Source: Liolophura sinensis
Taxonomy: Eukaryota; Mollusca; Polyplacophora; Chitonida; Chitonidae
Length of the DNA stretch: 64,000 nucleotides
NCBI RefSeq assembly: GCF_032854445.1
Contig: NC_088302.1
Coordinates: forward strand, 29,791,979-29,855,978
Direction of reading: 5' to 3'
Shown here: positions 2,932 to 41,160 of the stretch, piece after piece
Layout: every line of letters begins with the position of its first letter
How positions within the stretch are numbered: the stretch's first letter is position 1
The notes under the pieces: generated by a model
Databases searched by the model: none
Told to the model about the DNA's origin: nothing
The model's input: only the letters and a program-made list of their open reading frames with translations
Translations under genes and position numbers: made by a program

Positions 2932-2978
2932 GGAATATTCTTGAGTACGGCATAAAACTTCAGTCAAATAAATAAATA
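2932..2978 (+). repeat. SINE 3' tail fragment
   Basis: Matches only the last part of the common SINE: AATATTCTTGAGTACGGC, a CATAAAAC block, then TCAAATAAATAAATAA. The 5' part is missing. Confidence 0.7.
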
Positions 2979-18200: not shown

Positions 18201-21200
18201 TCAGGTGAGGAAGAAATTATTTTGTATGGTGCCCTAGCTGCAACACTATATGCAGGAAACAGTAGAGACAGACACACGAGTATTGTACGACAACAATACA
18301 TGACGACGACAACAGCGAGACTAATCCACGAGTGTTCAGCGAGTATAGAGGAGTGAAACGACTTTCCAAGTCTAACGTACCAGTCTAACACGAGCTCCGC
18401 CCCCCCCCCCCCCCCCCACCCCCCGATCGAGAAACGATTTCGACAACTGCAGCTCGACTTGTACAACGAGTATAACGACTGCTCTACGACTACACCACGA
18501 TATATTTACGACTTAGAACGAGTGCTCAAAATTTTCAACATGTTAAAAAAAAACCCGACTCATCAGGATTGGGCCCTATCAGCACGACCTTGCCAGAAAT
18601 AAGTCAGGACAACTCCACGACCTTTCGTCGACAACGCCCGAGTTTCCCCGACACTTCACGAATTTAACACATGGCGCAGTCGGCCGAGCTCGGCTCCGTG
18701 TGAGAGCCCCACATAACTATTTTGATTTTATTCCACATTTGGACTTCTCTTTTGTCTCCGTTCAGTTTAGAAGCAATGGAACATGAGATGCTGCATTCTC
18801 TTGCAATAATGTGATTCTTGTAAGAACGTACACTGTGTTTTGATACTTTAATCAATTTAAACGTTTTATCCCGGAACAAGGAATTCTCAGTACATCATTT
18901 TGAAATGTATACGAACAGTCAATTCAATTAGTAAATTTCCCATCCCCACAGTTCGTTTGACATTTGTGACAATAAATGATCGACGGCGCTCCTGGGGCTA
19001 TTTGTTGAAGATTGATTATTGTTGTTGTTGTTGTTTTCAGCAATATGGTGTACGTATCTGTACGTCACACATCAGTAATTTGCCAAAGGTCGGTGGTTTA
19101 TCCCAAATATTCCGGTTTCTTGCACTCGTGAAAATGACCGCCATCGTATAAGTGAAAGGATCTGTAGTATGGGTCTTCAATAAAGAACAATGATCAAATA
19201 AATAAATACTGTTTCTGTTTCAGACTGTCCAAAGCTGTAGAGACGGGACAATACGATAGTTTACAGAGAGTCACCCAAGGCTCAGTGCCCAGCGCTGACA
19301 TTCTGGCAACAGCGCCATTGGGAAATGATAGCTATGCAGACTTCCTCAAAAATGTGTCACACCAAAGAGAAGACTTTATATTAAGGTAAACATATACGGC
19401 TATTATCATGAGTTCAGTTCGTTCATCCGAGATTTCAAATGGTTAATCGCATAAACTGCCTTAACATTTATTTATTTTATTTACATGTATACTGGTTTTC
19501 TTGAACATTTGAGTGTAGTTCGTTGTCTGAAGGTTACAAGATGCTTGTGTCCTTTTCTCTACCAACATGAGGTATAGGCTCAATCGTGGCCTGGAACATT
19601 CTACATTCCCTCATTGTCAAGAATGAAAAATTTTTGAGTATAGCTATATATTTTCACTCAAACCCGTAAAACACGAAACATGCTGTAAGTTTATTTTATC
19701 AAGGTCATTGCCGGTATTGAGTCTCATGATGATTTCTTCTGGAAGCAAATACAACCCATGGAAACCTGAATTTTGGAAAATGATGCAGTATCCTAAAACT
19801 ATTCGCGAGCTCGCTTTCCAAATCACGGTTTTTCCGTTAGTAGCGTTGTTTTATGCTTTCATGCACTCTTCAAGAAAATAATTAAAAGAAATCCTTCAGA
19901 CGAGGAGTAAGAAGTAAACCTTATTGCGTCTCTTTCAACATTCGTATTCTACTGAGAAATGTCTTCTCGAACCAGTAATAGAATTAAAATATAATTTGCT
20001 GCCAAACGCCAAATTACGCCAAATGCTGGACGTGGGATTTAAACGAATCACTTGGAAGACTTGCTTGGGTACACTTGCTGTGTATCTGAAGACATTGCAA
20101 GTTCTAGAATCTTTCCCTTCTTGGTCGTCAGTCGTTTTTGTGAAGCCTGAGTCATTGACCCTACTGTGTAACTGAGACACTCAACTGTGCTCCCTCAATT
20201 GCTCTATTAATATTCTAGACACAAGGTTGGGCCAAGTGCCTTTGGGTGCTTTTAAGCCACCGGCTGTTTCTCAAGTGCGAGAGTTAATATGCCCTTGGTG
20301 CTACTTTAATACAGATTTTTCTTCGCCAGAGTTTGGTTTGTTGTTGAAAACAACATATGGCTGGAGCCAGTCGTCTTTTCGACCCCAGCATAAGCGTTGC
20401 ACAAAATTTATCTGAGATTCGACAATTAATCTAGACACCCGAAAAAATCGAAACTCACAGGAAAAGTTAAACCACTTGAATACAATATGGAGTCCCGTAT
20501 TCAGGTCCCGGAGCCAAAGGGTGTGAAGAAAGAAAGAAAGGCACGGCTGTTGGTAGGAGCATTGTCAGGGTTCCCAATTATCCGCGCAAGATTCTGCTGA
20601 ATTTAAAGTCGACGTTCGGCCAAGTGAAATCGTGCTCCAGGGAGCGTTGCTTCGCCTGAATCCCAACTTTTCGCGTGATGGGGGAAACTGCACGATGACA
20701 GAGTCCGCTGAAAGCCCCTGGAGCATAGAACCTTTGTCTGCTCGTTACCACATGGCTTAATTATCGTGTCCAAGTATTGATCTGGCCGGACTTGACTCTG
20801 TTCAAGGAGTCGGCCTTCACAGACGGATAGGTCGGTCGGTTAACGATTACAGGCTCAAGACATGCCCATTGAAATGTGATCGATACGTGCACTATTTTAC
20901 CTAGCGGTTGTATTTTCTGGCCCCCCTAGTCCTTCTTCCATGCCCTTTCCTCTTACTTAAGCTCTCCGTTAACTCCTTTTCTTCCCTTGCCTTAAGACAA
21001 CTCTAGTTTTTCAGATACTGTCATCAATTTTTTGGGGGTATTTCTGCAGATGATCGAAATAAAAGCTGTGACAAAGAAATCTAAAAAAATAACATTTTCC
21101 TTATTTAAGGAAAACACCTAGAAATTGAAACGTGTAGCAATGAAAAGTTTTTGTCCAGAAACATTACTAATAAAGCAAGCATTTGGGACAAATAATATTA

Positions 21201-24200
21201 GTGAAAGTAAGATATTAATATACAAAAACCAGACCAAATGAAACGAGGACTAATTATACTGTGGATTAGGCTAGAGAAGAGTTGTTATTCTTCTCTCTTT
21301 GGTATGGGGAAATCGATATACATACAACGAAGTATAACTGCGTGTGTTCAAAGCGTAGCTATAAGCATATTCCACGGTGTAACCTGAAGCGAAAGTAGTG
21401 GAGAGCAAATGGCAAGCAAATGTATTAATAAGTGTTGTTGACTTACTCATACTGGTCTGAATCACAACTGAACTTGTCGTGGCTGAGCGGTTAAGACATT
21501 TGCCTTTCTCGGGCGAGGACACACGGGATGCGTGTCCATTCCCGACCTTGCATTTGTAGATCCTCTTCTCACCAGTTTATCACCACGAAACCATCATACA
21601 CTTAAGTCAAAATTTTAATCATTAAATTTGACATGTTCCTTTCCGTTGTTTTAGCTGAAATTTCTTGTACAATAACTTACCCAGAATTTACGGTGTCAAA
21701 CGATATTTTGACCTGGTTACATGTGAAATAATAATTTTAAAGTGATTTTAAATTCTGATTTATTATGAAATCGTTTTGTAATAAATCATTTATTTATTGT
21801 AATTCACAAAAGACGATGATTTTCCCTAGACGCTCCAGTTTCCAGCACCATGAAACTTCACTGTCATGGTTAAACTATATAATCAAATAAATAAATGTAT
21901 AAATTGTTGCTTCCACAATAATACAATACACTGCCTACACCGAGAAGGTTATCTTTACCTTCATCTATCAGTTCATCCTAGAAACAGGTCAGGCCTCAAC
22001 AGGTCACAAGTTTGACGATACTGTCAACTACAGTATGGCCATTGGCCTTATTTTAATCCTTAAACCTACCCTCTGGTCTCATATTAACCTTAGGAATCCA
22101 TTATTTGTGAGTGTAAAAGTTGAGATCAGGAAAGAATTTTTGATCCGGAGCGGTGAGGCTGTAGTTAAGATCTCTCTGTACAAAACACAGGAAAGTGCAA
22201 ATCTGATGTCAGGTTATGGAATGGCCTTTTCGCCCACACCGTCTGTGATATTTTCATAAAACATTACTTGAAAAGTGTTCCAACACTCGGTGTTATAATC
22301 GTTGTTACATCGTTTCATCATTTATTTCATTGATTTTATTTATCTAGTTGATTGGTGTTTTAGGCCTTAGGCCTACTCAAGAATATTTCACTTATAAGAC
22401 GGCACTCAGCATTATTGTGGGAGGAAACCGAGCAGAGGATTTGGGAAACCCACAACCATCCGCAGGTTGCCGGTAGACTTTGACACGTACAGAGAGAAAG
22501 CCAGCATGAATTGGACTTGAATTCACAACGACCGCCTTGATGACAAGCTCTTGTGTCATTGCGCCGCGCTGGCACGCTAATGGCCTAGGCCACTGAGGCC
22601 CCCTAGTTTCATCGATGTTGATGAAATGGTTGCCTTATACGATGATGGTCAGTTGCAGTCAAAGTCATATCAAGGAATATTTTGGATAATTATACGTCTG
22701 ACTTCTTAGCCATAAGTATTAGGAGGGTAAGGAACTATTTGTCATCAAGGCTTTTAGCATTTTTTAGTAGCCAAGATGTGGTTGAAATACCGCCAATGTG
22801 CGTGACGTTATACCTCAACTAGTCATTCACTCATCTGGCATGATATCATTTGATAAGATATCAGTTGGCATCATATCGTTTTGCATGATATGGTGTTATA
22901 TGATTAAAAACTGTATGATTGGAACCGAACTTGGTTAAACCTAATATACACTATAACCAACAATTGGACGAAAGGACTAAGATGGTGTCACTTTCAGCCA
23001 CATGGTTTTCTTTTCCTTTCACGTCCTTTTTTCCTTTCTTTTTTCGACTGACTCTATGGTTCGTTGTTGCAGGTGTCAATGGCGGGACAGATGGTGTGGT
23101 CCTGCCAATTTCTCACTGTCCTTCACGGACACAGGGCTCTGCTACACCTTCCAGCCCGACCCAGCCTCGGCCGGTGTGGACAGGCCAGGTGAGTTACAGG
23201 CGGTAACGGATGCAGCATCTAGTTGTCTGCTATGACCTTACTGCATTGTCATGCATAATACAAAAAAGGGCTAAAAATGAAATTATTTGCACAGAATTTT
23301 TACATACATGTAGATTAAGCCCTTAAAAATGACCTCTCTTAATAGGGGAGTTTTGAGTACCAACTCTTTTATCGATGAAGATAGAAAAAGTCCAACTGTA
23401 TCATGTAACCTGCCAAAAATGTTAGGCAACTATTTTTGGATCACGTTCACTATAACACGGACGTCTGAAAAAAGTTTCATAGAACGTAGTTCATATAGAA
23501 CGAATGACAGAGAAAATTTGTGACAGGTGATCAGTAAATTAATGTCAAAAAAAGTTGCCTAACACTGCAAATGACACATAAGGACTGTTTTTACCATTGA
23601 CGACAAAACTCTCCAACTCTGAATTTGCCGTTACTTACTTACAGCAGCAGGAACTGACGGCTACAAATATTACGAACAAACATTATCTTAATTTTATAGC
23701 ACCCTGCGGATGGTCATGAGTTTCCCCCGGGGGTCTGCCCGTTTTACACCGACAATAATACTGACGGTGGTCGTACAAGTGGAATGTTGCTCAGTACGGC
23801 GTAAAACACCAACCAGATAAATAAATCAATCTTATTTTTATAACGTTCATTTTTATAATAAAATAGAAATATGTCTTAGAATGATTTGGGATGTCGTGTC
23901 AAAAAGAAAGGTTTGGAGAAAAAAAAAAACGAATGTGTCATTACTTTTTACAGGTCCGTCAACAGGCCTGTCTCTATTGCTAAATGTAGAACAATACGAA
24001 TATCTGCCCGGTAACAAACGAGGTGTGGGTGCTAAGGTAACTATCCATGAACCGGGCCACCTGACAGAGGTCAATCAGCAGGGCATCAATGTACCCGTGG
24101 GGAAACATACAGCCATGGAAATTAAACAAATAAAGGTAGGTCATGAAAGCGTGCTTCATGGTACAGTGGTGCAGCCCAGAGCGTTATTACAAGATACTGG

Positions 24201-27200
24201 TACGCTCCAGTTGTTCAAAAATGTATTAACAATTTATAAAGTTTGTGAATAGATTTAGGCTGGATTAGGTTCAATTTGTTAGAAATTTTGACAAAACTTG
24301 TATTAAGGTTTATCACATACTTAACCATTAGTACACTTTAGGGCCCAGTTGTCTTGAGACTTAACACCAGATTTCAGTTTAAGCCAAGTATTCAGCTTTG
24401 TACTTTGCCTCATAATGAATGCGTAACAGTATGTTAAATATGAATTAAGTCTTCTGCTGTTACACTTTGGCTTTAGATAACTGCAATGGCTGCTAAGTTT
24501 CACTAAAATTATAAATATATAATATGACTTTAATACCAGTATTAGCCAGTAAACGTTTGAACAACACGGCCCTGAACAACCTGTTCGTGATCTAACTTTG
24601 CCACACAGACGAATGAAAGGCTATAAATGTCAATATAAATGTTACTGTCGACGACTTAGCAAAATATTGTATAACTGTTTCATTTCATCTCATTTATTCA
24701 CCATAAATCTTAAAAATAAATGCATTGATATACATGTGGAATACAATTGGGGAGGGGGGGGGGGGGGGAATAAAGCTCTTATTTGCTCTATCCCATGGAA
24801 ACTAGAATGAGTATACAGGGAATATTTGCCTGCGGTGATAATATTAGAGTGTGTTATATATAAACATACATGGGAAGAAAACAAATTAACACAAACAGTA
24901 ATAATATAAGATGTCAGAAACTTTATAGACATCTTTGTGTGAATTTTGTTTTACGTGTTTTTTTTATATTTGTCAGTTAGCCTATATAACTGTTGAAATC
25001 TATAGCTGGCCTTCATTCAGTTTCGGGTTAAGTTCAAGTTTTGGACTCTGTTTTGGACTCTGACATAACTGTCAAACAGTTGATGAAATATGAATGAACG
25101 TATATGATATCTTTTCAATTTATACATCGTGGTGAATGCTAAATTTCATTTTTAAAAAATACGACTAATACCAACATTGGTTTGAGACAAGAAAATTCGA
25201 AAGCCAGAGGCATTCAAGTTAACAGTATCCGGAGCCCTAAGTGTTTCCTCTCAAAGTCAGTGGGCATACTAAAAGCTCTCTGTGAGACGTATCTGGTCAC
25301 CATTAGTGTTTGTTATTGTCCCGTTTAAGACTACTTTTCCGGGTTGGTGGTAGCCGATATTCTTCGCGACAGCGTCTGGGGCGGATGCTTTAAACCCTTT
25401 CTTAGCGACTGGGTGCAGTGCATTATTGTGGGCACGGCAAAACCATGCTGCTTATTGGTCTCATTAGGCACCTTGACAAGCTCAAATGGATCCCTTCCCA
25501 ACTGTTCGACTTCCTCTTTAGTTCAATCAAATGCCGCCTTATTGTAGATCATTGGAGAATTAAGCTTATTTCAACATCCGGTATCTCAATCTTTTTTGTT
25601 CATATTTCAGCACATGCGCCTTCAGCCTCCCCTCGGCAAGTGTCGGAGTTTAACCACCTTTAATGGTAGTTCTGCGCAAGTGCAGTACACTAGAGACCTA
25701 TGTGAGCGACGTTGTAAAACAAGGGAGATAATATCGGAGTGTAATTGCTCGCCCCCGTCAAGCCCTGAATTTCACCGTACGTATTCAATTTAACCGCATT
25801 TTTTTTTTGGTGCGGATAGTTACATTTTCAAATGTCACGGTATTTTGTTGTCTGCAGTTTAAAACTGTATTAACATATTCAATTATTACAGGTTTTGTAC
25901 TGATTTGGTGTCAGATGACTGCACTTGTTTGAATACCGGTATTAATTAAGAGTAGGTTTGGAGTAAGTCGATTTCAAAAATTTGAGTCGAACTTAAAATC
26001 AGATAAGTAAAACTTGTGCGATCAATAACGATTTCGAATAGCCTTGAACCTAGGCATCAGCAAAATGGAAGTAACTTATACATCAGATTGTTAAGGAAGA
26101 TGTCATTATATAATTAATCAAATGTTGACTCTTTGTTAAGAAATGTATGTACTTCATTTATGTATAAATCCATGTATTAAAGTTTGCAATGCTTTGTTGC
26201 TTTCAGCTAATGTTAAAAAGTGCGATGTAAGGCAGTACTTCTCCTGCGCTGTAAAGGTCAATGGTGAGTTCATAAATAACTGATAATTTCTTTCCTCAGT
26301 CATCTTTGGTTTGATTTTTCACAGAATTACCACACTCGATAACTAGGACTCCTGCATTACAGCAATTTTCCCAAATAATTTAACCCAACGATATGCACTG
26401 GAGTTCCGATTAACGACAAGTAGGAATATTAGCATTGGAATGGTATAGAACACTTGGGACATAGGGTATCCAATTCAAGATGAATGTTTGTGTATTTAAA
26501 CAAGAAGTGAAAACAAAAATACGTGAATTCGAACGCCTACTAAATGTTTGATGCTACACACTTATATACAGAAAAAAACAGATCCACTGTATTTACACGT
26601 GTTAAATGTTTAATGCAATTTTGTAGGTTTCACCGGTCGAAACCAGAAGGAGTGTGGCTGTGAACTGGAATGTGACAGAACGGAATTTGATATATTTGCC
26701 TCGCACGCCACATTGGCGTCCTACGGCGAAGTGAACTGGAGAAGGGAATTTAAAAATCTCGCCGCTTTAGAAGAACGTGTTAGAAACGCTCGCGACACTT
26801 TCCAAAAGGAGGATGTGTCTATAAAGAATCACGATCGTGAGCAGCTCTTGTCCCTCAAACAGTCTTTGGAGGATAGCTCTGTTCAGGCGGATTCGTTTCT
26901 GACCTACGTCAATCAGTACGACAAAGAGCATACGAATGCCTCTAATAATCTTTTGGAGGCTGTCGGAGAACTAAATAAAAGCGTTCTGTCCAACTACGAC
27001 TTTTTCCAAGCAACAGGTCACACGGCTTTTAACTTGTTTGTACAGAACCTTAGAAAAGAGCTTAACGGTATTTCGTCGAAAGCTAAAGAGTTTTATCCGG
27101 GCAAGATGAACAGTCAAGGTCGACCAGAGCAAATGTCTTTACAAAGCGTGGATGAAATGCTGAGAAACTTAAGCAAACTGGTGCCAACGGGAAAGCAAGA

Positions 27201-30200
27201 TTGGTCCCAGAGTACGCCAGTCATGGTGGAAATACAGGACGGAATCCGGACATTCCAAGATGAATTGTTATACGGTTACGGTCAAAATTACAGAGAATTC
27301 AACAAGTCCAGGCGGTATTACGAGATCAGTACGCGTGGCTTGTTGGATACGGCTCAAAAACTCTCAGCTGTTCTTCTGAAAAGTTATTGGCTACTAGGCA
27401 ACACTAGTGCTGCGGCCAGGGGACGTAACCATGTCAGAGCTAACACTCTGTATAGTGCCTTTTTGAACACCATTAAAGAGGCAGAGAGAAGCCAAGTGAA
27501 ACTGTCCCAAGAGCTAGAAGAGTTATTCCAGCGATATATAGAAAACCGTCGGGGAGTTGTGTCGCTGTATAAAACGTTAATGAGTATCGGGGCCAACACA
27601 ACAACGGATTCTTGGAGTTTGTGTAAAGATGTGAAACAAATGAAATCCCTCGCGGAGAGACTAAAAATCAAGATGTCATACCTCCAGGATTCCATGGATT
27701 CTGTAGTTAGAGGATATCTCAAAAATGACTTCAATAAAACAGCTATGGGAAATCGGCTGAAAGATGACAAAATATTCAAAGAAATGAATGAGGTTGAGGT
27801 AGGTATAAATATATGATGGGAAAGTTTATTATCATATAAACGAATATCAAGTGAACCAAAATGAAATCTTTAGACACAGATTGTTATGTGAAGGTCATGA
27901 CATCGTATCTGGTATTTCTAACTGTGCCAACGTGATCATGGTTGTCTGAATATAAAGATTGCTGAATAGCCAAGGAGATGTAAAAGTAATAAAGTCAAAT
28001 GGTAAGGTTGCTATTGGGTATAGTACCATCCATTTGCAGTTTGATCAACCGTATACACACTTCCAATACGTGTTGTGAAATTACTTTTAAAGATCCACCC
28101 ACGGGAACAAGGCAATACATTTGTTCTGTGCGTTTAAAATAGGATGACAAATCGAACACCCTTACTTCACAGTCAAGTCTCAAATCTGACATACGACCTG
28201 TGACGTGACACATCTAATCCTCGACGATACCATGATTGCTGAGTCGCAATTTGTTACCGAAGTAAGCTTATTAAAAGAAGCCCATTGAAAGCAAAAACAG
28301 CATATATGTATGTATATATGTATATGTATTCTGCTGGTTATAATATGTATTGGAGGGGGGTGCCGTGGCTCAGTTGCTTAGCGCCCTAGCGCGGCGTAAT
28401 GACCCAGGAGCCTCTCACTCGCTGTGAGTTCAAGTCCAGCTCATGCTGGCTTCATCTCCGGCCGTAAGTGAAAATGTCTTCAGCAACCTGCGGATGGTCG
28501 AGGGTTTCCCCCGCGCTCTGCCCGGTTTCCTCCCACCATAATGCTGGCCGCCGTCGTATGAGTGAAATATTCTTGAGTACAGCGTAAAACACCAATCAAA
28601 TAAACAAATAAATAATTTGTTTCAGACAATATTCTTGTGGTATTCTTGTGATAAAAATCGTGGCTGTGGTCATTTAAAACAAACCCATTGTCAGATTCCT
28701 CTATCTTCAGAAATATAGCCGAGTATGTTTCGCTGCCTGTGTGTTGTCAAGTTGTTCACTGAGTCGGTTTTATAAGCCCATACCGAAGGAGGTGGCTCCA
28801 GTGTATGGTGTATCCACTTACCCATCACTGGACAAAAGAACTAGCCATAATCGTGGGCATGCAAATTGCACCTCTAGGTCAGCTTTTCACTTTTTGGTTT
28901 ATCCACTCAATCAGCTAACAAAACATAGCCTATATCAAACAAGACTATAGTAAACAGACTAAAGCCAGACCAGTCACGACAGTGTGATAGTTGGCAAATC
29001 ATCACATGAAATCCGGTAGCTTGTCAGTTCGCCTCATTTAGGGTTTCATTCTAGCTATTCATGAAAATGGCTAAAGAGAAGGAACTTACTTCACCTCTAG
29101 CATCATGGCTTCAGTAGATAAAAAATAATGCAGTTATGTTATTAGCGATACATATGTAGATAGTAGCATGTGTCAGTCACTGTACAGGGAAACATATGAC
29201 ATGAGTAATATTATTTATGACAAATGTGGTAACCGCCTCAAATACCCTTTTCCTGTTTCTTTCGGGGATTAAAACATGAGTGTACCTAAATCATGCAAGT
29301 CAGGAGAAAGCCTGTTGCTGTATAGATATTTAGATCTATTCATAGATATTATTATGATTAACTGAATCTTTGGCCGAACAAGATTTTGATCGTCTGACGC
29401 ATTTCCTTGACGCTCAACTCTCCCTTGGTTGCCTGAACACATATACTGGATATATTCACAAAGACTAAGATACATGATCCTGATTTACCTAGCACAATAT
29501 TAAGAGTCATTATGTTTGGCCGGAAGACCGAGCAATTCGCCTCAGTTAATAACGTCGAACTAACTTAAAGGTTATCTCGTCTTCTACATCATAAAAAGGG
29601 GAACATGGATGTAGTTATCGATGCTATGTTTAAATACCGATGTCTTTAATGAATCTAATCAGGCTATTCATTAGAAGCGTGACAGAGTTGCCGTGCCTTT
29701 ACAGGCCGGAACTGAAGGCTCTAATTGGTGGAGAACCAGTAATACGACCCACCATCCTTTGCCTATTCACTGTGATAATGATCAATAGGCTGTCCGCCAT
29801 ATGATTTTCCCAGCTCTAAAAACTGTCCCGACTGCAACCGTAGTCGGTAAATCAAGAGCACCGTTGCCATGTCAACGAGCGGGTATTTTCGCAAAACGGG
29901 CAGTTGCCGGCAATAATTAGCGTCTGCTTCACGACTAACAAGGGACATTATCAAGCGGTTTGATGCACGTGGTTGTCCATTGTCTCCCTAGCTAAAGGTC
30001 GCATGACATGTGATGTGGAAAAAACTTGGCGAGGTGGCGAGGTAATGATGTTCTGACATGCACACCTTATTCCAAGCCGCGTCCAGCACCGTACAACCTT
30101 GTCCGTGGTGCTTGCGGCATAGTACATAGAACAATACATACACTATAGACAGAAGTATGCCATAACAACCGTTTGCAATAACACTTTTTACCTCAGGAAT

Positions 30201-33200
30201 TGCAGACTATACCAATTAAGTATAGATCATGCGTTTAATCATAGATATAGCAAAAGTTAATCATCATTTAACCGAAAATGCCGCTGTTTGGCCCAGCCTA
30301 GAGGGTTAATCAATGTAAAATTTATATCCCGCTTGTATCTAGCGCTGCGATCGGTAGTTAGCGCTGCCACAATGGCCTATGACCTTGTGCGGAGTTTCAG
30401 TCATGCCTGCATAGATAACATGCGTGAAGATAGAGTAGCCACAACGCTGTTTTGACTTTCTGCAAATATGGGACCATTTGATTGCCTGTTCTAGCCGTCG
30501 ATGATTTTCGGTACAAGAGAGAGCGGCAACAGTGCCTTTATGTAAAACTTGTTACATCGGATATTCACATAGCTGCAGTGTTTGAGCATTATTGGATTTG
30601 AGCGGGTATAGTTTTCCATTATCATTAAAATCGGTTGCCTGAATATAAGGTTGAATATGTATTTGGATTCGACTGTGAAGTGGTAACGGTATCTAAGATC
30701 TTAAGAAGAAATAGATGTTCGACATTTTGTTGTTGTTTTTGTTGAGGTCTATTTTTTGGTGTGAAATTGATTTCACACGAAATCACGCTTCAGCACTCGA
30801 GATTTGCTTGTTACGTGTTCACATATATGTTTTCAAAGAAAATTCACGTGAAGAGGTGGTATTTAGCAGTATATCACCTGTATCTCCCGACACCCTTCCC
30901 TTATTTTCCCAAAGCTCCTGTATAAGTCCGCTCAAATGTGTTGACTTAGCTCATCTCATGGCAAGGACGTATGCTGCTATGGTGATTAGACAGGTCATTA
31001 GACATGGTGCATGTCACGAGACCGCCATCGTGCCTTTCCATATAGTAATATTAAGCCTACATATAGCCTGAAGGGTTATCGTACCTGGCCCTACAGGACA
31101 ATTTCACGTTCATGTACCTTTCCAACTCCAGTCCGTCCTAATACCTGGTATACACTAGATCCCACAAGTTAGGTTAGGCTTGAGATTAATGAGTGTGAAA
31201 TTTAGCACTCGTCGGTTTGACTTCTCCACACAAAAGTTTTAATGGCTGGATTATTCTTGCAAGAGGGTTTGCCGGTGTAGGTTTTGACATCTTTTAATCC
31301 CGTATTATATTGAGTCTCTATGAAACTTGAGCAGTAGGTTTGGAAAAGAAACTACAGGTGCGTATAGCCTGGCTCGCTGGGTCTGGCATAATGGTGCTGT
31401 AGGAAGCGGTGGGGCAGGCGGCGGTTGAGGCTGTACTACTGCACTTTCAAAAGTGGGGTAGCCAGCATATGCTCTATATCTAAAAACTAAATTTGTGCCA
31501 AAATGTGCAGCATAGGCCTTCTTCATCATAACCTTGAGCATGGATATTTTTGTCTCATAAAACACGTTCAAACGCGCGTTCGGTAACAGACGCACATAAA
31601 TAGGCTTTGCATACAAGTATTAAACCTTACATATAAGCAATCCTCTGGTTCAGACTGTCCACACAGCCCCATATCAATGATCAACCCGTAGAGTGTTCGG
31701 ATAAAGCCATTCTAGCATTTCATAAAAAGGTATCATTTCATTTTTAACTCGTGATTACTTCGCGAATTCCTTTCTGTTCCGAATATTTCATTCAAATGAC
31801 CTCGGTTAGTTGGGTGGGTGAAAGAAACTCGACACAGCCATGAGAAACCGCTGCACCTCGACAGTTGTCTGATAAACCACCTGACGTAAGGCAGTAACCC
31901 AGCGATCTGAAGCTTGCTTGGAAAGTTTAACCTTATTCTTAGGTGAACTGAGACAGCGTAGCGCTGCCTGCGATGGTCTTCATTTCACTCATTTTATATA
32001 ATATTTGTATCAATTTAACCAATAAATCAATTAACGAACCTCTCACCAATACGGCCACTGTGGGTTCAAGCCCCAGGTCTTCCTAGCTTCCTCCCCTGCA
32101 GTACACGGGATAGCCTGCAACCATCTGCGGATGGTCGTGGGTTTTTCCCCGGTTCTCCGATCATAACGTTGGCTGCCGTCGTATAAGTGAAATATTCTTG
32201 AGTACAGCGTAAAACACAAATCAAATAAATGAATAAAATCATAAATCTATTAATCAGCACTGCTATTGACCTTTCATTACAGTCCATCGTACGCAGTATC
32301 TTATCCATGACAAACCGAATGCAGCTGGATGGGTGGAATCTGGTGAACCCGATTAAACCTATATCTGCTCGTCTCAGCGAGTTCGGACTGATGGAACCAA
32401 CTAAGGTCCAGCTTATCTTTGACCGGCTTACCTTTTCCTTGCTGAGCAAAGAGGTGAAACATCTGAACGACGAGATCCAGACGAGCCTGAGCATAATACG
32501 GTCGTACCAGGAGGAACTATCCGACTACACTCGATCTAACAGGATCAACGAGGATTTCTATAAGTAAGTCAGACACGGCTAAATTCTACCTGACAACCCT
32601 AATCAGTCTGTCTAGGATTTTCTGTACATGTAACTAACTACGAGTCTGTTCCAATTTTCATACACAACGTTTAATTCGTTGCAGACAAGAGCTTCAAGTC
32701 GATAATGCCGGGCTCCAGATTTTAGAAAAACAATATGGACCAACACACTGCAACACTACGCCAAAAGATTATACATGTAAATAGTAGGAAAGGCCGATAT
32801 GATGTGAGTCAGAGGCCATTGCCAGCTTTCACTTAGTTCAGAAATACGGCATGAGATCACTACAGTGTACGCGGCTCTGAGTGACAGCCAGGATTAAATG
32901 TAACGCTCGTCCCTTATATATATTTTTTTTCATACGCGGCCATCACAGTTCATAGTGTATTTTCATATTTTCTGCTAGGAAGACTTGAACTGGATAATTG
33001 CGACTTAAATTATTTGATTGTCGTAAAACACTATGAGCCATGGAGTGTGTGGGGGAATCGGGAAGCGAAGAAATAAAGGGTGAAACTATAGGGATGACAC
33101 TCGCATACAGGTCTATACCGTGCCCTTATAAAGGGTATTTCTGTAGGGAGAATGACTGTGGGTCTAGAGAAAGGATTAAAGAACAGGACTTCCACGCTAT

Positions 33201-36200
33201 TTTTATTAGTACCTAAAAGAAGAAAGGCGAGAGATTCTCAGACATGTCAATCTGTTTTATGAACAAAAAAATGCTGTGCTGCCAATAACGCCAGCATATC
33301 ATTGTAAGTGTTGGAAGTGCACTGTTTCTAGCCAAAGTTAGCATGGTACCCGGCTGATGTTGATTGTTCCAAATCCATTGACTTCGTTGAACTCCCCTGT
33401 CTTGTAAAATGGTAGAAGTATGTACTGCAGCGAATCTTTTAGACATACCCGCGCAGGTTTTCCATATCGCTGGCTCAGTCGATTGAAGCGTTGTTCTAAT
33501 TCAGGTTCGAATCCATTTCCCGGCTGCAGATTTATGTGAACAGGTTTGTCAAGTATACCTGGCAAAGGGAGATGTTTCTTCCCCTATTTTATCCTCCCAT
33601 AAATCTAAAAAGTTAAATATTCTTCAGTACAGCGTTAAACATTTATCAAATATAAATAAATCAGTATTCAAGTGCTTGACAGGCAATAAATAAAATGCAC
33701 ACTCGTGGGAATGAGAAATGGGCTGCACTATCACAAAAACAATTTTAAAAAAAAGATATCCAGTGGTCAATTTTTAGTGAGTATTAAGCACTCAATAGAT
33801 TATGCTTAAGACATGGCTGTCAGCACTGCGCGAAGAATGAGTGATTGATAAAACGTCAAGAACGATTATGCATAAATAATATACCTTGAGTTAAGGCGTC
33901 CCAAGTGGATAAAGGTTGACGCGCAGCACCGAGGTAAACAGGCGTCAGCAGTGCTGTAGATAACTGCCTACCTCATCAAAGATTCCCAGTCAATGGACCA
34001 TCTCTATTTAAATCATGTCGTGCTGTATTGTCTTGTAAATGCTGTTTATCGATTTACCATGGAGAGATGCCTCCTTCAGTACGATAGGTAAACCCTCAGC
34101 CTACCTGGCTCGACCGATAACCCAGCATAATTAGAGGAAATTACCTTTCAAGCAAGGCGTCCGAACATTGATTTGAATCTCTCTTCATCGGAGAGAAACG
34201 GGTGCTTGATAAGCACTGGTTTTCTGCACAAAGGAAACTCGTTCTTCTCGCACGTAATTGTCGGTGATTTCCATCGGGGGCAGTGCGTGCTGGTGGAAAG
34301 ACTTGTGATCTGCCGACCGGAGAGATTAGCATGTCGAGCACACAGAAGGAAAAAACTTAATTGTCCCTTGCACAGCAAAATAAAAAAAATGCTGGTTAAG
34401 ACTGCCATCCATCTTCACGAACACATATCATAGATTTTTTCACTACGTGTTATTGCCTTGAATCTGCACGTGTTTAAGTGCCATTACGTAGTGTTTTACC
34501 GTCTGCTATCCTCGCATTTCATCATTCAATGTCGGGCTGAAATACAACCATGAGCCATTTCTTTCCTCAGCGGCTGTACCTTACTTACAGTTTAAATCAA
34601 ACGTTGTCGTATGTTTCGTGCTCGACTGGCTGTAAAATGGCCTTATGTCATCGCAGAATCGATCAATGTATGTAATTGTAACCCTGCTATACAGCCCTTA
34701 ACTAAGTAGACTGTGATAAGTGTACATTACAGGGCATATCTCGCAATGCGCATATAATATACTGGACGTATCTTGCAGTCGAAGAGAAATAACGAAAGCA
34801 AAAGTCTTAAACAAGGACTGTATCACTATATATAAACATACTCAAATTTAAACATAAAGAATGGCATGGGGTATTAACTCACGTCAAGTCTCTTTAGAAT
34901 TCACTCGGCTTGTGTATACTCAAAAGTTAAACAAGGAGTCCATTTTTGACGGACACGATAATACAATGCCACATGTCAAAAAACGAATGTCATCCAAAGT
35001 TTTTTTGACCATGGGGTGGAACTTAAGGTGGATCGCTTTCATTTTGCTTCCGCACAATAGGCGTGATCGCTGAACATTTCACACCCTCCTACACAAGCCG
35101 GTTCAAAACTGTAAAAAAAACTCAGTCGTATAACTTAATCTGCATTACACGTAAACATCATGATGCTTGCCGCTGTCGTATAACTTAATCTGCAGTACAC
35201 GTAAACATCATGATGCTTGCCGCTGTCATATAAATTAATCTGCAGTACACGTAAACACCATGATGCTTGCCACTGTCGTATAACTTAATCTGCAGTAGAC
35301 GTAAACACCATGATGCTTGCCGCAGTCGTATAACTTAATCTGCAGTAGACGTAAACACCATGACGCTTGCCGCTGTCGTATAACTTAATCTGCAGTAGAC
35401 GTAAACACCATGGCGCTTGTCGCTGTCGTATAAATTAATCTGCAGTAGACGTAAACACCATGATGCTTGCCGCTGTCGTATAACTTAATCTGCAGTAGAC
35501 GTAAACACCATGATGCTTGCCGCTGTCGTATAACTTAATCTGCAGTAGACGTAAACACCATGACGCTTGTCGCTGTCGTATAAATTAATTTGCAGTACAC
35601 GTAAACACCATGATGTTTGCCACTGTCGTATAAATTAATCTGCAGTAGACGTAAACATCATGATGCTTGCCGCTGTCGTATAAATTAATCTGCAGTACAC
35701 GTAAACACCATGATGCTTGCCGCTGTCGTATAACTTAATCTGCAGTAGACGTAAACACCATGATGATTGTGTTTACGAAATTTACAAAACTTGAAACGCC
35801 TAGAACATACCTTGCGTCTTTCCAAAATCATTGGAAACTGTTGGCTGATCCTCTTTGCATGATTCCGCCCTATTTTCGTACTTTCTTAGTTCTGTCATGG
35901 TTTGTTATATGCGTCGTTTTGGGAATTGGTCTTGCCATTATTGATCTGGTTGACGGTTGGTATACGAATGTCTGTTTCGACGCACAGATCCAATCAGATA
36001 TGATATGAGTATAGAAGAACTGTTTTTTTTCTGCTTCAGAGCCAATCTATTACAGCTGGAGTTGTACTTTCCTGACCTAACCGAGACTCGCATCACGCAG
36101 AGAATCGCATACGGCTTATTTGATCTGGCTTGTAAGTTCCCTGGCTTGTTTACATTCTGTGATATTACAATCCTTTCTGAACAATGTAACATTGTTGTAA

Positions 36201-36829
36201 AGCAGAAACGAAGATCCATTTTTTTTATAAGTTAACATTAACAATATAGAGGATAGGAGGTGCATTAGTCTGTATACATGTACCTATATAGTATTGCAGT
36301 TATGTAACCGTAGTTCTACTTTTGATCCAGTTTTCTTTGATTACATCAAATAGAGAAATGACCTTGAATTATTACCCCGTTGGTAAAGTACATTTGTTCA
36401 AAACTTAGGCTACCTTATATATAGCTATTCTTCAGTTCCTAATAAGGACAATAATAGACAGTCAATGGGAGATAATCCTTCCTTACTTTGCAGATATTTA
36501 GAAGTCTTTTGTGTGGTTTGGCATTAAACATTTCTTTTCCAAATGAAAGACTCATTATTGTTACTTGAGAGCTAATTGTAATGGTGATTTACTCGTAAGT
36601 CTAAGTAAGGTAATTGTTTATCTAAAAAAAAGACGCAAACCGTTTTGGTTATATTTTTCCATTATTATACATGTATTTCTTCAGCTTTTTAATTGTGATT
36701 CTTTCTTCTCCAGGCGATGTCGGTGGAACCTTCGCGCTTTATCTGGGATTTAGTCTGTTAACAGCATTTGACATCTTGGATTTTCTCGGAGCCTTTTGCA
36801 AATGGTGCGCGTATCCATCCAGGCAGTGA
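5779..36829 (+). CDS. DEG/ENaC-family cation channel with a large extracellular insertion (gene span)
   Basis: Predicted amiloride-sensitive-type sodium channel subunit: a plasma-membrane protein with cytosolic ends, two membrane segments and a large ectodomain, expected to work as a trimer. Twelve exons were placed by reading splice sites: 5779-6206, 12766-12933, 19224-19385, 23073-23188, 23954-24135, 25611-25776, 26207-26263, 26627-27798, 32283-32563, 32685-32776, 36040-36131 and 36714-36829. Phases agree everywhere except exon 10 (ends phase 1) to exon 11 (needs phase 2), so one exon may be unfound there. Family marks in order are TM1 (from residue 144), FPAVTICNLNPFR (187-199), GLCYTF (274-279), GLSLLLNVEQYEY (296-308), CGCELEC, then GDVGG and the GFS selectivity-filter motif in TM2. 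Total length is about 1,010 residues against roughly 500-650 for typical ASICs. The excess is about 480 residues inserted before the TM2-proximal strand. The ligand and subfamily cannot be told from sequence alone. Confidence 0.9.
6687..6772 (+). repeat. 18-bp tandem repeat, about 4.7 copies
   Basis: The unit GTCCAAGCAAGCTGCCAT is repeated at 6687, 6705, 6723 and 6741, with a partial fifth unit. Because 18 is a multiple of three it leaves open frames on both strands that look like repetitive peptides; I do not believe they are coding. Confidence 0.9.
6920..7018 (+). repeat. Fragment of the 7170-7634 TIR family
   Basis: Contains an AAAACCAAAATCAGGGCAGC-like left end, then the ACGATAGTGTGACAGTC core and a TTTTATTTTAACTTTATG internal block. 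Related fragments occur near 13165, 28955-29075 and 41455-41560. Confidence 0.5.
7170..7634. mobile_element. Short non-autonomous DNA transposon with about 35-bp TIRs
   Basis: The left arm 7170-7204 starts GTAAAACCAGAGCAGCGAGG. The right arm 7600-7634, reverse complemented, starts GTAAAACCAAGTCAGTGATG, and both arms go on into GACAGTGTGA. The interior has no transposase frame, so this is MITE- or foldback-like. Decayed relatives elsewhere in the window support a dispersed family. Confidence 0.65.
8043..8077. repeat. TA/CA microsatellite
   Basis: A run of TA dinucleotides passes directly into a run of CA dinucleotides. Confidence 0.95.
10963..11130 (+). repeat. SINE, lacking the tRNA head
   Basis: Begins CCGGCCGTGCGTGGGAAGG and runs through the core (CCTGCGGATGGTCGTGG, CTGGCCGCCGTCGTATAAG) to a TAAATAAATAAA tail. 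The tRNA-like head seen at 28355 is absent. Confidence 0.9.
12402..12795 (+). repeat. 73-bp minisatellite spanning the TM1-exon splice acceptor
   Basis: Six copies begin at 12402, 12475, 12548, 12621, 12693 and 12766. Each starts with a variant of GTTGATATGGGTATTGATA, which in the last copy is the first 19 bases of exon 2, and ends in a pyrimidine-rich TTTCAAG or TTTCAG. The last copy is the real junction (CTTTCAG/GTTGATA). Similarity runs about 30 bases into the exon. Copy 5 also has an intact TTTTCAG acceptor, but using it would read into TGA. Confidence 0.9.
12766..12933 (+). CDS. DEG/ENaC exon 2: TM1 and the FPAVTICN motif
   Basis: Encodes TM1 (LIWVLIVGALLALAAYQL, from residue 144) and then the signature FPAVTICNLNPFR at 187-199, the most diagnostic element of the superfamily. 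Acceptor CTTTCAG, donor TTTCAG/GTAAGT; enters and leaves in phase 2. The start of the exon is the last unit of the 73-bp array. Confidence 0.95.
13883..13910. repeat. Near-perfect palindrome, 13-bp arms
   Basis: GATTTATACCACC and its exact reverse complement GGTGGTATAAATC are separated by AA. Confidence 0.9.
14493..14635 (+). repeat. SINE, headless, with 11-bp target duplication
   Basis: Starts CCGGCCGTAGGTGGGAAGG and ends in TAAATAAATAAAT. It is flanked by CAAAAATCAGA at 14482-14492 and again at 14636-14646, a perfect target-site duplication, as expected for LINE-assisted insertion. Confidence 0.92.
17914..18665. repeat. Unclassified ACGA/CGACT-rich stretch with an internal inverted repeat
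   Basis: GTCCTACTGCAGTCCTG near 17919 is answered by CAGGACTGTAGTAGGAC near 17994, an inverted pair. From there to about 18665 the DNA is unusually rich in ACGAC, CGACT and ACGAG words and includes a poly-C run (18399-18420). A 60-codon frame (18174-18356, with an ATG) lies inside, but I recognise nothing in it. It may be a decayed transposon; that is a guess. Confidence 0.4.
19131..19207 (+). repeat. Decayed SINE tail next to the exon 3 acceptor
   Basis: Reads GACCGCCATCGTATAAGTGA and then a diverged body ending TCAAATAAATAAATA. The pyrimidine tract and acceptor of exon 3 follow immediately, so the 3' end of this intron is largely SINE-derived. Confidence 0.7.
19224..19385 (+). CDS. DEG/ENaC exon 3: early ectodomain
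   Basis: Residues 200-252, in phase with both neighbours (acceptor TTTCTGTTTCAG, donor TTAAG/GTAAAC). It carries sequons NDS (233) and NVS (242), as expected for an extracellular segment. It corresponds to the variable stretch between the FPAVTICN block and the first conserved Cys pair. Confidence 0.85.
21476..21548 (+). repeat. tRNA-Ser-like pseudogene or SINE head
   Basis: GTCGTGGCTGAGCGGTTAAG resembles the 5' half and A box of a tRNA-Ser. The downstream part has no good GGTTCGAATCC B box and does not fold cleanly, so this is not called a functional tRNA. Confidence 0.5.
22331..22603 (-). repeat. SINE, full length, reverse orientation
   Basis: Reading the minus strand there is a tRNA-like head (GTGGCCTAGGCCATTAGCG), the middle part and the ATTCTTGAGTAGGCC tail. 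Possible target duplication TTTCATTGAT (22325-22334) and TTTCATCGAT (22607-22616), one mismatch. Confidence 0.88.
23073..23188 (+). CDS. DEG/ENaC exon 4: first Cys-rich segment with GLCYTF
   Basis: Residues 254-291. Opens with CQWRDRWC, Cys 254 and 261, matching the family's C-x-W...C block, and continues to FTDTGLCYTF (270-279), a superfamily hallmark. Acceptor GTTGCAG, donor CCAG/GTGAGT; phases 2 in and 1 out. Confidence 0.93.
23699..23827 (+). repeat. SINE, 5'-truncated
   Basis: Begins within the core (CACCCTGCGGATGGTCATG) and ends GATAAATAAATC; diverged. Lies in the intron between exons 4 and 5. Confidence 0.85.
23954..24135 (+). CDS. DEG/ENaC exon 5: GLSLLLNVEQYEY segment
   Basis: Residues 293-352. 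GLSLLLNVEQYEY, then GVGAKVTIHEPG, then GINVPVGKHTAMEIKQIK. This matches the family's G-L-x-L-x-L-N-x-E-Q-x-E-Y / V-x-I-H / G-x-x-V-P-x-G order in the beta-ball and finger-adjacent region. Acceptor TTTACAG, donor AAAG/GTAGGT. Confidence 0.95.
24136..25610 (+). other. DEG/ENaC intron 5
   Basis: Contains a MITE (24341-24572) and a G-rich run (24750-24768). No other feature recognised. Confidence 0.7.
24341..24572. mobile_element. MITE, GGGCCC-ended, copy 1
   Basis: Starts GGGCCCAGTTGTC and ends GAACAACACGGCCC, so the ends are inverted repeats. The interior (GACTTAACACCAGA ... AATACCAGTATTAGC) closely matches the copy at 62993-63233 along its whole length. No coding capacity. Confidence 0.75.
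25611..25776 (+). CDS. DEG/ENaC exon 6: Cys-rich palm/thumb segment
   Basis: Residues 353-407 plus one base. HMRLQPPLGKC continues the KIKxLPPPYGxC block from exon 5, then YTRDLCERRCKTREIISECNC gives four closely spaced cysteines typical of the disulfide-rich thumb. Acceptor TTTCAG, donor TTCACC/GTACGT. Joined to exon 7 it reads EFHPNVKKC. Confidence 0.93.
26207..26263 (+). CDS. DEG/ENaC exon 7: 57-base micro-exon
   Basis: Two bases, 18 codons and one base: NVKKCDVRQYFSCAVKVN. The two Cys continue the thumb disulfide ladder. Acceptor TGCTTTCAG, donor AATG/GTGAGT. It is too short to show as an open frame, but its phases lock it between exons 6 and 8. Confidence 0.88.
26627..27798 (+). CDS. 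DEG/ENaC exon 8: C-x-C-x3-C strand plus large helical insertion
   Basis: Encodes 390 codons. The first 31 (to ...SHATLAS) are standard family sequence: ECGCELEC followed by FDIFASHATLAS, equivalent to the CxCxxxC...S-x-A strand of ASICs. The other roughly 360 residues match no DEG/ENaC segment I know. They are rich in Leu, Glu, Lys, Ser, Asn and Gln, look helical with coiled-coil-like spacing (for example LSQELEELFQRYIENRR), and hold one Cys only. Seven N-glycosylation sequons (NAS, NKS twice, NLS, NTS, NTT, NKT) agree with an extracellular position. Acceptor TTTTGTAG, donor GTTGAG/GTAGGT. An apparent start near 26713 is only a TTG inside the exon. Confidence 0.92.
28355..28614 (+). repeat. 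SINE, full length, reference copy
   Basis: Best complete copy in the window. The tRNA-like head has an A box (GTGGCTCAGTTGCTTAGCG) and a B box (GAGTTCAAGTCC). Then GCTCATGCTGGCTTC, the conserved core (AACCTGCGGATGGTCG, GCTGGCCGCCGTCGTATG) and the tail ATTCTTGAGTACAGCGTAAA ending CAAATAAACAAATAAATAA. Transcription would be by RNA polymerase III. Confidence 0.93.
32038..32238 (+). repeat. SINE ending 44 bases before the exon 9 acceptor
   Basis: Begins at the B-box region (CTCTCACCAATACGGCC, GGGTTCAAGCCC) and runs to AATAAATGAATAAAATC. Its tail forms part of the 3' end of intron 8. Confidence 0.88.
32283..32563 (+). CDS. DEG/ENaC exon 9: helical insertion, continued
   Basis: 93 codons plus two bases, in phase with exon 8 (...MNEVE-SIVRS...). 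Acceptor CATTACAG, donor CTATAA/GTAAGT. The sequence is again helical (LLSKEVKHLNDEIQTSLSII, then RSYQEELSDYTRSNRI), with no Cys. Not a family-conserved segment. Confidence 0.82.
32685..32776 (+). CDS. DEG/ENaC exon 10 (probable): end of helical insertion
   Basis: Acceptor TTCGTTGCAG. Joined to exon 9 it reads YKQELQVDNAGLQILEKQYG, then THCNTTPKDYT. It has one Cys and one sequon. The end at 32776 uses a fair donor, ACAT/GTAAAT, leaving phase 1, while exon 11 needs phase 2. Either an exon is missing between them, or the frame runs on to a TAG at 32782-32784 and makes a form without TM2. Confidence 0.6.
33455..33661 (+). repeat. SINE of a different tRNA-headed type
   Basis: TGGCTCAGTCGATTGAAGCG (A-box-like) and CAGGTTCGAATCC (B box) begin it. 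The body differs from the common SINE, but the end ATTCTTCAGTACAGCGTTAA ... ATAAATAAATC shares its tail. A shared tail suggests that both depend on the same partner LINE. Confidence 0.65.
35122..35772 (+). repeat. 50-bp satellite derived from the SINE tail, 13 copies
   Basis: The word CATGATGCTTGCCGC recurs every 50 bases from 35159 to 35759 with no length change. The unit (CATGATGCTTGCCGCTGTCG, TATAACTTAATCTGCAG, TAGACGTAAACAC) aligns with the SINE segment CATAATGCTGGCCGCCGTCG, TATAAGTGAA..., GAGTACGGCGTAAAACAC minus a few bases. This is a SINE tail amplified in tandem. Confidence 0.85.
35760..36008 (+). other. Unexplained 82-codon open frame at the end of the 50-bp satellite
   Basis: Starts at ATGATG inside the last satellite unit and encodes a basic N-terminal part followed by a strongly hydrophobic segment (FLVLSWFVICVVLGIGLAII) and DLVDGWYTN. 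The hydrophobic part is TM1-like in character, but the frame lies where the ectodomain should be encoded and does not join exon 11: the donor TTG/GTATAC would create a TGA. It could be an alternative first exon, a decayed duplicate or chance. I do not call it a gene. Confidence 0.25.
36040..36131 (+). CDS. DEG/ENaC exon 11: strand leading to TM2
   Basis: Acceptor CTGTTTTTTTTCTGCTTCAG, donor GGCTT/GTAAGT. Reads ANLLQLELYFPDLTETRI and then TQRIAYGLFDLA, equivalent to the family's N-x-L-x-x-x-x-x-F-x-x-L...Q-x-x-x-Y stretch just before TM2. Must be entered in phase 2; the other frames contain stops. Confidence 0.92.
36714..36829 (+). CDS. DEG/ENaC exon 12: TM2, selectivity filter and C terminus
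   Basis: Joined to exon 11 it reads LACDVGG, then TFALYLGFSLLTAFDILDFL and AFCKWCAYPSRQ-stop. GDVGG and the GFS (G/S-x-S) filter are the TM2 hallmarks. The acidic residue usually Glu after the filter helix is Asp here. The cytosolic tail is very short. Acceptor CTTCTCCAG. Confidence 0.93.
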
Positions 36830-40050: not shown

Positions 40051-40500
40051 TCCTTCAAAAGATAGACAAGAGAAAAATTCGTGAGCACCCGTACAACTAA
40101 AAGACATTTAGAATATTCGGAGCTGCCTGTCCTCTTAATTCCACTTTAACCTCAGAAAGAAAGTATATATATTCCAAGGTTATGCTTCTAACATTTTTGA
40201 TAAATCTAAAGTGATGTCGCCGACGTTTAAAAGGAGACAATGAGTGGTACTTGCCAGTAGGTAGGAAGTGGCAATGGCCAACGTATAGTGTTGCAGTGAA
40301 GTAGGGGAGACAACTTCTATAAAAGCTGAGTTGATTTTTTTCTGAAAGAGTTTGATTTATTTATTTAACTGGTCTATACACCGTACTCTATAATATTTCA
40401 CTTATTTCGTAGTTTGATGTTGGTGCTTGTTTACTATAACTCTGCCACACTTGGTATTTGTATAATAAAAAATTTAAATTTAAATTTAACTTCAGATCTG

Positions 40501-40630
40501 GTTTCCTCTCTGGCCGTACGTGGGAAGGTCTGTAAGCAACCTGCGGATGGTCGTGGGTTTCTCCCGGGCACTGCCCGATTTCCTCCCATCTTAATACTGG
40601 CCGCCTTCGTATAAGCGAAATATTCTTGAA
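40501..40630 (+). repeat. SINE, truncated at both ends
   Basis: From GTTTCCTCTCTGGCCGTACG to AAATATTCTTGAAG; loses the terminal A-rich tail. Lies directly upstream of another copy. Confidence 0.88.
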
Positions 40631-40661
40631 GTATTCAGGAGTGCCCTCAGTTAGTCTGTTG

Positions 40662-40852
40662 TCGCTGTGAGTTCAAGCTCATGCTGGCTTCCTCTCCGGC
40701 CGAAAGTGGAAAGGTCTGCCAGCAACCTGCGGATGGTCGTGGGTTTCCCCCCGGCTCTGCCCGGTCTCCAACCACCATAACGCTGGCCGCCGTCGTATAA
40801 GTGAAATATTCTTGAGTACGGCGTAAAACACCAATCAAATAAATCAATAAAT
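40662..40852 (+). repeat. SINE with perfect 14-bp target duplication
   Basis: Begins at the B-box area (TCGCTGTGAGTTCAAGCTC) and ends CAAATAAATCAATAAAT. CAGTTAGTCTGTTG occurs at 40648-40661 and again at 40853-40866, a perfect 14-bp duplication, so this is a fairly recent insertion. Confidence 0.93.
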
Positions 40853-41160
40853 CAGTTAGTCTGTTGGCGCCACCCATTAGCACAGTTGGAAGCGTGAAGC
40901 AAAGAGACTAGGGTTTGATAGTGTCTCTCAACGACAGACCATTCGAATGTAAGTACAGAAAGCTACGGAGATAAAACCTCTGATAAAAATCGTCACTATC
41001 ACTGAAAAATAAAACCATCTAACCTTACCCAACATGTGTGCTACTCACTCCTAACGCAACTTGAAAACGTCATTACAAGCTTTTGAACGCCAGAAATTTT
41101 ATGTTAACATTTAAGAGATGACCTGACCAAAGATTAAGTCTATAGGTTTAAACATTGTCC

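What the first reader, a model, noticed from the sequence alone, without database searches (positions are those of the whole stretch)
26720..32776. DEG/ENaC channel with about 480 extra extracellular residues at the knuckle position
Seen: normal family sequence up to ECGCELEC...SHATLAS, then about 360 residues in the same exon and about 120 more in exons 9-10, then normal family sequence from ANLLQLELYF into TM2. In ASIC1 this interval is one short helix (alpha-6, knuckle) of about 25 residues. I know of no DEG/ENaC with a domain of this size there. Inference: the helical domain could tether the channel to matrix or a partner, or sense force or ligand.
Basis: partly seen in the sequence, partly recalled or inferred. 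Interest (0 to 1): 0.85.

Follow-up and report, generated by a model that had tools for sequence, protein, structure and literature searches.

The report
Sodium channels with giant helical extension
A chiton gene encodes a DEG/ENaC sodium channel with about 450 extra, probably sugar-coated helical residues on its outer face, and about a dozen sister genes in the same genome carry related or similarly placed extensions, so this looks like a channel branch that grew a new sensor or tether rather than a one-off oddity.

Summary
The main observation holds. Ten window exons, joined at GT-AG sites with matching phases, give one 836-residue DEG/ENaC frame. It has 453 residues between SHATLAS and ANLLQLELYF; the ASIC5 alignment leaves 13 residues there.

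It is not a single-gene oddity. The domain recurs at 8 other loci on the same scaffold, with exon 9 behind it at 8 of 8, two weakly. One copy is decayed; one has a late frame slip. Four further genes carry 472-477 residues in one exon at the same site, distantly homologous to the first kind. Another has a 235-residue insert with no detectable similarity.

The domain looks extracellular and helical: 3.6-residue periodicity and two sequons kept in 7 of 8 genes at 26% mean identity. No Pfam family reached cut-off. How it affects gating is unproven; I favour a force or contact antenna over ligand binding. No transcript evidence was available.

The parts
12766..12933 (+). Exon with TM1 and start of the extracellular domain (LIWVLIVGALLALAAYQLRDR..FPAVTICNLNPF)
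   Evidence: Pfam ASC E 2.1e-12; in the 836-residue frame
19224..19385 (+). Exon, finger region
   Evidence: In the 836-residue frame, GT-AG, matching phase; aligned to ASIC5
23073..23188 (+). Exon, extracellular domain
   Evidence: aligned to ASIC5
23954..24135 (+). Exon, palm (GLSLLLNVEQYEY)
   Evidence: Pfam ASC E 2.5e-10
25611..25776 (+). Exon, thumb/cysteine-rich region
   Evidence: aligned to ASIC5
26207..26263 (+). Exon (PNVKKCDVRQYFSCAVKVN)
   Evidence: aligned to ASIC5
26627..27798 (+). Exon 8: last family segment (ECGCELEC..SHATLAS, to 26721), then 359 insert residues (26722-27798)
   Evidence: matches 8 other loci; alignment of 7; donor in the same place and phase 0 in 6 of the 7 aligned, L005 differing by a frame slip
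32283..32563 (+). Exon 9: last 94 insert residues (with the first base of exon 11)
   Evidence: Matches downstream of the insert exon at 8 of 8 other loci, two weakly; donor phase 2 in window and 7 of 7
32685..32776 (+).
   Evidence: TAG at join with exon 11; no match better than E 5.2 in 7 paralog loci; exon 9 to 11 phases agree without it
36040..36131 (+). Exon 11: channel sequence resumes (ANLLQLELYFPDLTETRITQRIAYGLFDLA)
   Evidence: 52-69% identical exon found in 7 of 7 paralog loci
36714..36829 (+). Exon 12: TM2 with GFS at the GxS position, and stop
   Evidence: TM2 exon found in 7 of 7 paralog loci

Best explanation
The gene encodes a DEG/ENaC channel subunit whose alpha-6/knuckle loop has grown into a folded, helical, N-glycosylated extracellular domain of about 450 residues. 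It is one of 13 non-decayed genes with a large insert at this site seen in this chiton (8 type A including one with a late frame slip, 4 type B, 1 type C). Shown or strongly supported: one continuous frame, the position, conservation across paralogs, helical periodicity, conserved sequons. Inferred: in the trimer three such domains stand on the outer corners of the extracellular cap as antennae. The mechanism I think most likely is mechanical or contact gating: helices and glycans engage matrix, mucus or a partner protein, and displacement at the knuckle is passed to the neighbouring subunit's finger, then thumb and gate.
For: Continuous 836-residue frame over 9 junctions. Site matched against ASIC5. 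Domain at 9 loci counting the window, each with DEG/ENaC exons upstream on the same strand. Type B carries a distantly homologous insert: profile score 39.2 against a maximum of 23.2 in 100 column shuffles and 19.1 reversed. Helical periodicity 0.137 against at most 0.062 in 200 shuffles. Two sequon columns in 7 of 8 genes, control motifs at most 4 of 8. In alpha-ENaC a knuckle asparagine is important for shear response, and a knuckle sequon added to delta-ENaC raised shear response in a matrix-dependent way (PMC7958617, abstract and passages). The outer corner is called important for gating and a proposed matrix-tether site (PMC11026163, passages).
Against: No transcript, structure or recording. 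In FaNaC1 alpha-6 (the knuckle) is described as relatively static during ligand gating (PMC11026163), which argues against knuckle movement as such being the trigger. The insert diverges fast (26% mean identity against 57% for the exon 11-12 segment), which fits recognition of varied partners as well as a tether. The structure model is too weak to show a stalk (mean pLDDT 46.1). The sequon excess is not significant in every gene (window gene p 0.198).
Confidence: 0.42

Rival explanations
1. Same structure, but the helical domain is a ligand-recognition module: the paralogs are a chemoreceptor-like repertoire in which each domain binds a different peptide, protein or environmental cue and opens or tunes the channel through the finger and knuckle.
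For: Divergent, partly clustered family with decayed members, insert evolving faster than the pore end. In FaNaC1 the peptide pocket is formed by finger helices together with alpha-6 (PMC11026163).
Against: No known ligand-binding fold found; several motifs such as GYGQ.Y.EF are kept in all 7 aligned genes, which a freely varying binding site need not keep, though a scaffold would.
Confidence: 0.3
2. The domain serves assembly, subunit pairing or shielding of the trimer cap (a helical collar or lid), not sensing.
For: Helical periodicity typical of bundles; three subfamilies could pair with each other selectively (inference).
Against: DEG/ENaCs without the insert assemble; the insert diverges much faster than the pore end.
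Confidence: 0.15
3. Splicing or annotation artefact: exon 8 is cut short in the real transcript, or the insert belongs to another gene.
For: No cDNA was available. A GT at 26718 (GTCCTA) is in the phase that would join exon 11; a GTGAGC at 26837 looks like a donor.
Against: GTCCTA is a poor donor; the GTGAGC at 26837 is in phase 1 by my count, which fits neither exon 9 nor exon 11. The domain follows channel exons at 9 of 9 type-A loci, is in the same exon as the channel CxC segment in types A, B and C (the 19.28 Mb gene has an intron within it), and 4 protein queries found it only at DEG/ENaC loci.
Confidence: 0.04

Closest known systems
ASIC5/BASIC and ASIC1 (DEG/ENaC, PF00858), solved chains
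   Same: Channel core from TM1 to the CxC segment and from beta-12 to TM2 aligns (ASIC5 E 7.1e-38, ASIC1 E 6.3e-33)
   Different: ASIC5 has 13 residues where this protein has 447 between aligned ends; gating and selectivity unknown here
FMRFamide-gated channels (FaNaC)
   Same: Mollusc FaNaC is the next best solved relative (7yvb, E 1.2e-34); its alpha-6/knuckle borders the peptide pocket (PMC11026163)
   Different: No solved FaNaC aligns through the insert; peptide pocket not examined
Types B and C of this genome
   Same: Type B: 4 genes with 472-477 residues at the same site, insert distantly homologous to type A; type C: one gene with 235 residues
   Different: Type B has the insert in one exon. 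Type C shows no similarity above shuffles. A C7 gene has profile matches 305-391 and 382-455 47 bp apart, hence no large insert, though it reads in more than one frame; L020 showed no such exon
alpha-ENaC knuckle glycan (shear sensing)
   Same: A sugar on the knuckle as candidate matrix tether (PMC7958617)
   Different: There a single glycan on a short loop; here a whole glycosylated domain, force sensing untested

Membership tests
DEG/ENaC (PF00858) | Pfam ASC profile match over its cut-off | tested here: met
   245.9 bits against 23.6, E 1.2e-72 on the spliced protein
DEG/ENaC (PF00858) | TM1 and TM2 either side of a cysteine-rich extracellular domain, GxS in TM2 | tested here: met
   TM1 exon and TM2 exon with GFS read in one frame and aligned to ASIC5; that GxS is the filter motif is recalled, GIS in FaNaC1
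DEG/ENaC (PF00858) | N-terminal cytosolic HG motif (recalled) | tested here: inconclusive
   No convincing exon in window 1-12765; it may lie before the window
DEG/ENaC (PF00858) | Trimer conducting amiloride-sensitive cation current | not testable with these tools
   Needs expression and recording
ASIC/BASIC subfamily | Groups with ASIC/BASIC in a tree | not tested
   Only best phmmer hit (ASIC5); no tree built
FaNaC/WaNaC subfamily | Peptide gating through the finger/knuckle pocket | not tested
   Pocket residues not compared
Any known domain family for the insert | Match over a curated Pfam cut-off | tested here: not met
   None reaches its cut-off for window exons 8 and 9 and 3 paralog exons
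Any known domain family for the insert | Specific solved relative | tested here: not met
   46 chains at E <= 1, mostly coiled coils and long-helix proteins, best E 2.7e-4; Foldseek 0 at E <= 0.001 from a weak model

The most novel reading that the evidence does not exclude
Chitons, and perhaps other molluscs, evolved a class of receptor channels in which the DEG/ENaC knuckle became the docking site for large evolvable extracellular sensor domains; three versions (A about 450, B about 475, C about 235 residues) form a repertoire for external chemo- or mechanosensation.
Probability: 0.35. Interest if true: 0.88.

Novelty: new variant of a known kind. Interest (0 to 1): 0.72.

Why it matters
The extracellular part of DEG/ENaC channels is usually described as one hand-and-ball plan that varies mainly in the finger. 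Here a large new domain is built into the knuckle and kept across a gene family, a natural experiment on how force or ligand at the outer corner reaches the gate. The force-from-filament idea for these channels lacks a defined extracellular tether; this is a concrete candidate that can be deleted and tested. The insert is also a helical domain for which these searches found no specific relative.

Tried and rejected
Rejected: that the insert is a single-gene accident.

Led nowhere: Foldseek against the PDB gave 0 matches at E <= 0.001 from a model of mean pLDDT 46.1; I draw nothing from its listing. Pfam and PDB sequence matches to the insert are scattered helical families below cut-off, taken as compositional. 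A-C and B-C inserts show no similarity above shuffles, so type C is linked only by position. No N-terminal exon was found. No tree and no dN/dS were attempted. Whether other chitons or molluscs have the domain could not be tested; no eukaryote collection beyond G000 was available to me. The sequon excess is not significant in every gene: shuffle p 0.198 (window), 0.094 (C), 0.054 and 0.050. The control motifs are also rarer than sequons in total (26-38 against 58), which weakens that comparison somewhat. The periodicity of type B was computed without shuffles. The A1-A2 match includes the channel segment before the insert and proves little.
Full report
Origin. The window lies in G000 contig C8; G000 has 632 contigs and 609,464,459 bases. 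The chiton assembly first published as Liolophura japonica has 632 scaffolds, 609,495,693 bases, N50 37,343,639 and a scaffold_13 of 19,479,325 (PMC11068029, passages); contigs C9 and C5 have exactly those last two lengths. A correction renames the species Liolophura sinensis (PMC12441733, whole text).

Gene model. Ten exons from 12766 to 36829 join at GT-AG sites with matching phases and read 836 residues with one terminal stop. Pfam finds only ASC on it at E <= 0.001 (245.9 bits). The best solved relatives are ASIC5 (E 7.1e-38), a FMRFamide-gated channel (1.2e-34) and ASIC1 (6.3e-33). ASIC5 aligns to residues 2-315 and again to 763-829; 13 ASIC5 residues lie between, against 447 here. Counted from SHATLAS to ANLLQLELYF the insert is residues 316-768, that is 453: 359 from exon 8, 94 from exon 9. 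A first coding exon with the HG motif was not found in the window.

Its 92 nt put a TAG at the join to exon 11. In the 7 paralog downstream loci fetched, exons 9, 11 and 12 match in order on the same strand in 7 of 7, while exon 10 has no match better than E 5.2. Exon 9 ends and exon 11 begins in phase 2 in 7 of 7 and in the window. Exon 10 could keep the frame only through a two-base shift within the CAGAG acceptor of exon 11; nothing supports that, and nothing excludes it.

Type A. With the exon 8 insert as query, 9 places match at E <= 1, one of them the window; the 8 others are 20-27% identical with frames listed as 388-430 residues. Two other queries find the same loci and, for the C8 19.28 Mb gene, a separate first piece of the exon. 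Exon 9 matches at 8 of 8 of those loci, downstream on the same strand, two of them weakly (E 0.14 and 0.44). All 9 loci have DEG/ENaC exons upstream on the same strand, and all lie on C8. The 19.17 Mb copy (L008) is decayed: its pieces lie in different frames with stops between, so the 388-residue frame listed for it is not an intact insert. The 29.73 Mb copy (L005) has a frame slip near the end of exon 8 relative to its sisters: a young pseudogene or an assembly error. That leaves 8 genes including the window, 7 of them without a visible defect in the exons read.

Types B and C. I fetched 6 further DEG/ENaC loci, picked for a similar exon pattern. Four carry an exon with 472-477 insert residues at the same site (type B: C5 13.25, C9 10.40, C9 25.69, C11 10.10 Mb). 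One carries 235 residues (type C, C8 12.52 Mb), and a search with it finds only itself at E <= 1. One (L020) showed no such exon. Behind the insert the resuming channel exon was found in 3 of the 3 type-B loci fetched that far and in type C; TM2 was found in 2 of those 3 and in type C, not within the L016 stretch. A B query also finds decayed fragments at C9 10.414-10.416 Mb. The other DEG/ENaC loci (76 exon matches in all, a lower bound) were not examined, except a C7 gene taken as a control: its profile matches 305-391 and 382-455 lie 47 bp apart, so no large insert; but it reads in more than one frame and may itself be broken.

Homology of the inserts. With the channel segment before the insert included, A and B profiles match over 59 columns (E 1.3e-7), which proves little. 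With that segment removed and exon 9 added, A and B score 39.2 over 136 columns, against a maximum of 23.2 in 100 column shuffles and 19.1 for the reversed profile; the match crosses the A exon 8/9 junction. So A exons 8 and 9 together correspond to one exon in B, independent evidence that they belong together. A-C (16.6, shuffle maximum 22.6) and B-C (12.6, shuffle maximum 20.8) show nothing.

Nature of the domain. Averaged hydrophobicity of the A alignment peaks at 100 degrees per residue (0.137; 200 shuffles reach at most 0.062); B peaks at the same angle, without a shuffle control. AlphaFold2 without an alignment gives helices up to 67 residues long and no strand of 3 or more, at mean pLDDT 46.1. 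The eight A inserts hold 58 sequons; two alignment columns hold one in 7 of 8 genes, while four control motifs, themselves rarer (26-38 in all), reach at most 4 in any column. Over 13 inserts sequons number 96 against 43.8 expected from shuffles, above the mean in 13 of 13 but not significant in each. In type B one sequon (N192/T194) is invariant in 4 of 4. Cysteines number 0-2 per A or B insert. This reads as an extracellular helical bundle or stalk without a disulfide framework. It diverges faster than the pore end: 26% mean pairwise identity against 57% for the beta-12 and TM2 segment and 33% for the 30 residues before the insert. No Pfam family reaches its cut-off, and PDB sequence matches are mostly coiled coils and long-helix proteins, best E 2.7e-4.

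How it may work. In FaNaC1 alpha-6 is the knuckle and borders the peptide pocket at the outer corner; that corner is called important for gating in the superfamily and a proposed matrix-tether site, but alpha-6 itself is described as relatively static during gating (PMC11026163, passages). In alpha-ENaC a knuckle asparagine is important for shear response, and adding a knuckle sequon to delta-ENaC raised shear response in a matrix-dependent manner (PMC7958617, abstract and passages). A glycosylated helical domain on that spot is well placed for force or contact sensing. Fast divergence, partial clustering and decayed copies fit a recognition repertoire too. I put 0.42 on a force or contact antenna, 0.30 on ligand recognition, 0.15 on assembly or shielding, 0.04 on an artefact of splicing.

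Known or not. The rows listed by paper searches named no large knuckle insertion, and the passages found in three family papers mentioned none (PMC10507113, PMC9822975, PMC10148893). These are open-licence papers, only the top rows were seen, and no eukaryotic protein collection was available, so absence from other molluscs is not shown. The channel is a DEG/ENaC; the insert makes it a new variant of that kind.

Noticed in passing
12405-12789: A 73-bp tandem array (5.3 copies) runs into the TM1 exon, which starts at 12766: the units look like copies of the intron end and exon start.
   Followed up: no
35125-35769 and 55950-57274: Minisatellites of 50 bp x 12.9 (in the intron before exon 11) and 49 bp x 27.
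   Followed up: no
L008 (C8 19.17 Mb) and C9 10.414-10.416 Mb: Decayed type-A copy and decayed type-B fragments: members are being lost as well as kept.
   Followed up: partly
L005, 3' end of the insert exon (C8 29.73 Mb): Frame slip relative to the sister genes shortly before the conserved donor: young pseudogene or assembly error.
   Followed up: partly
L021:2935-3711 (C8 12.52 Mb): A DEG/ENaC with a 235-residue insert at the same site, 4 cysteines, no detectable similarity to types A and B.
   Followed up: partly
L019:3746-7212: Open frames that look like a retroelement (zinc-knuckle and reverse-transcriptase-like stretches, by eye) in the intron before the insert exon of the C11 gene.
   Followed up: no
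about 14480-14640, 28355-28610, 32030-32240, 40500-40870: Copies of one interspersed repeat with a shared 3' part; looks like a tRNA-derived SINE (name recalled, not tested; seen by eye).
   Followed up: no
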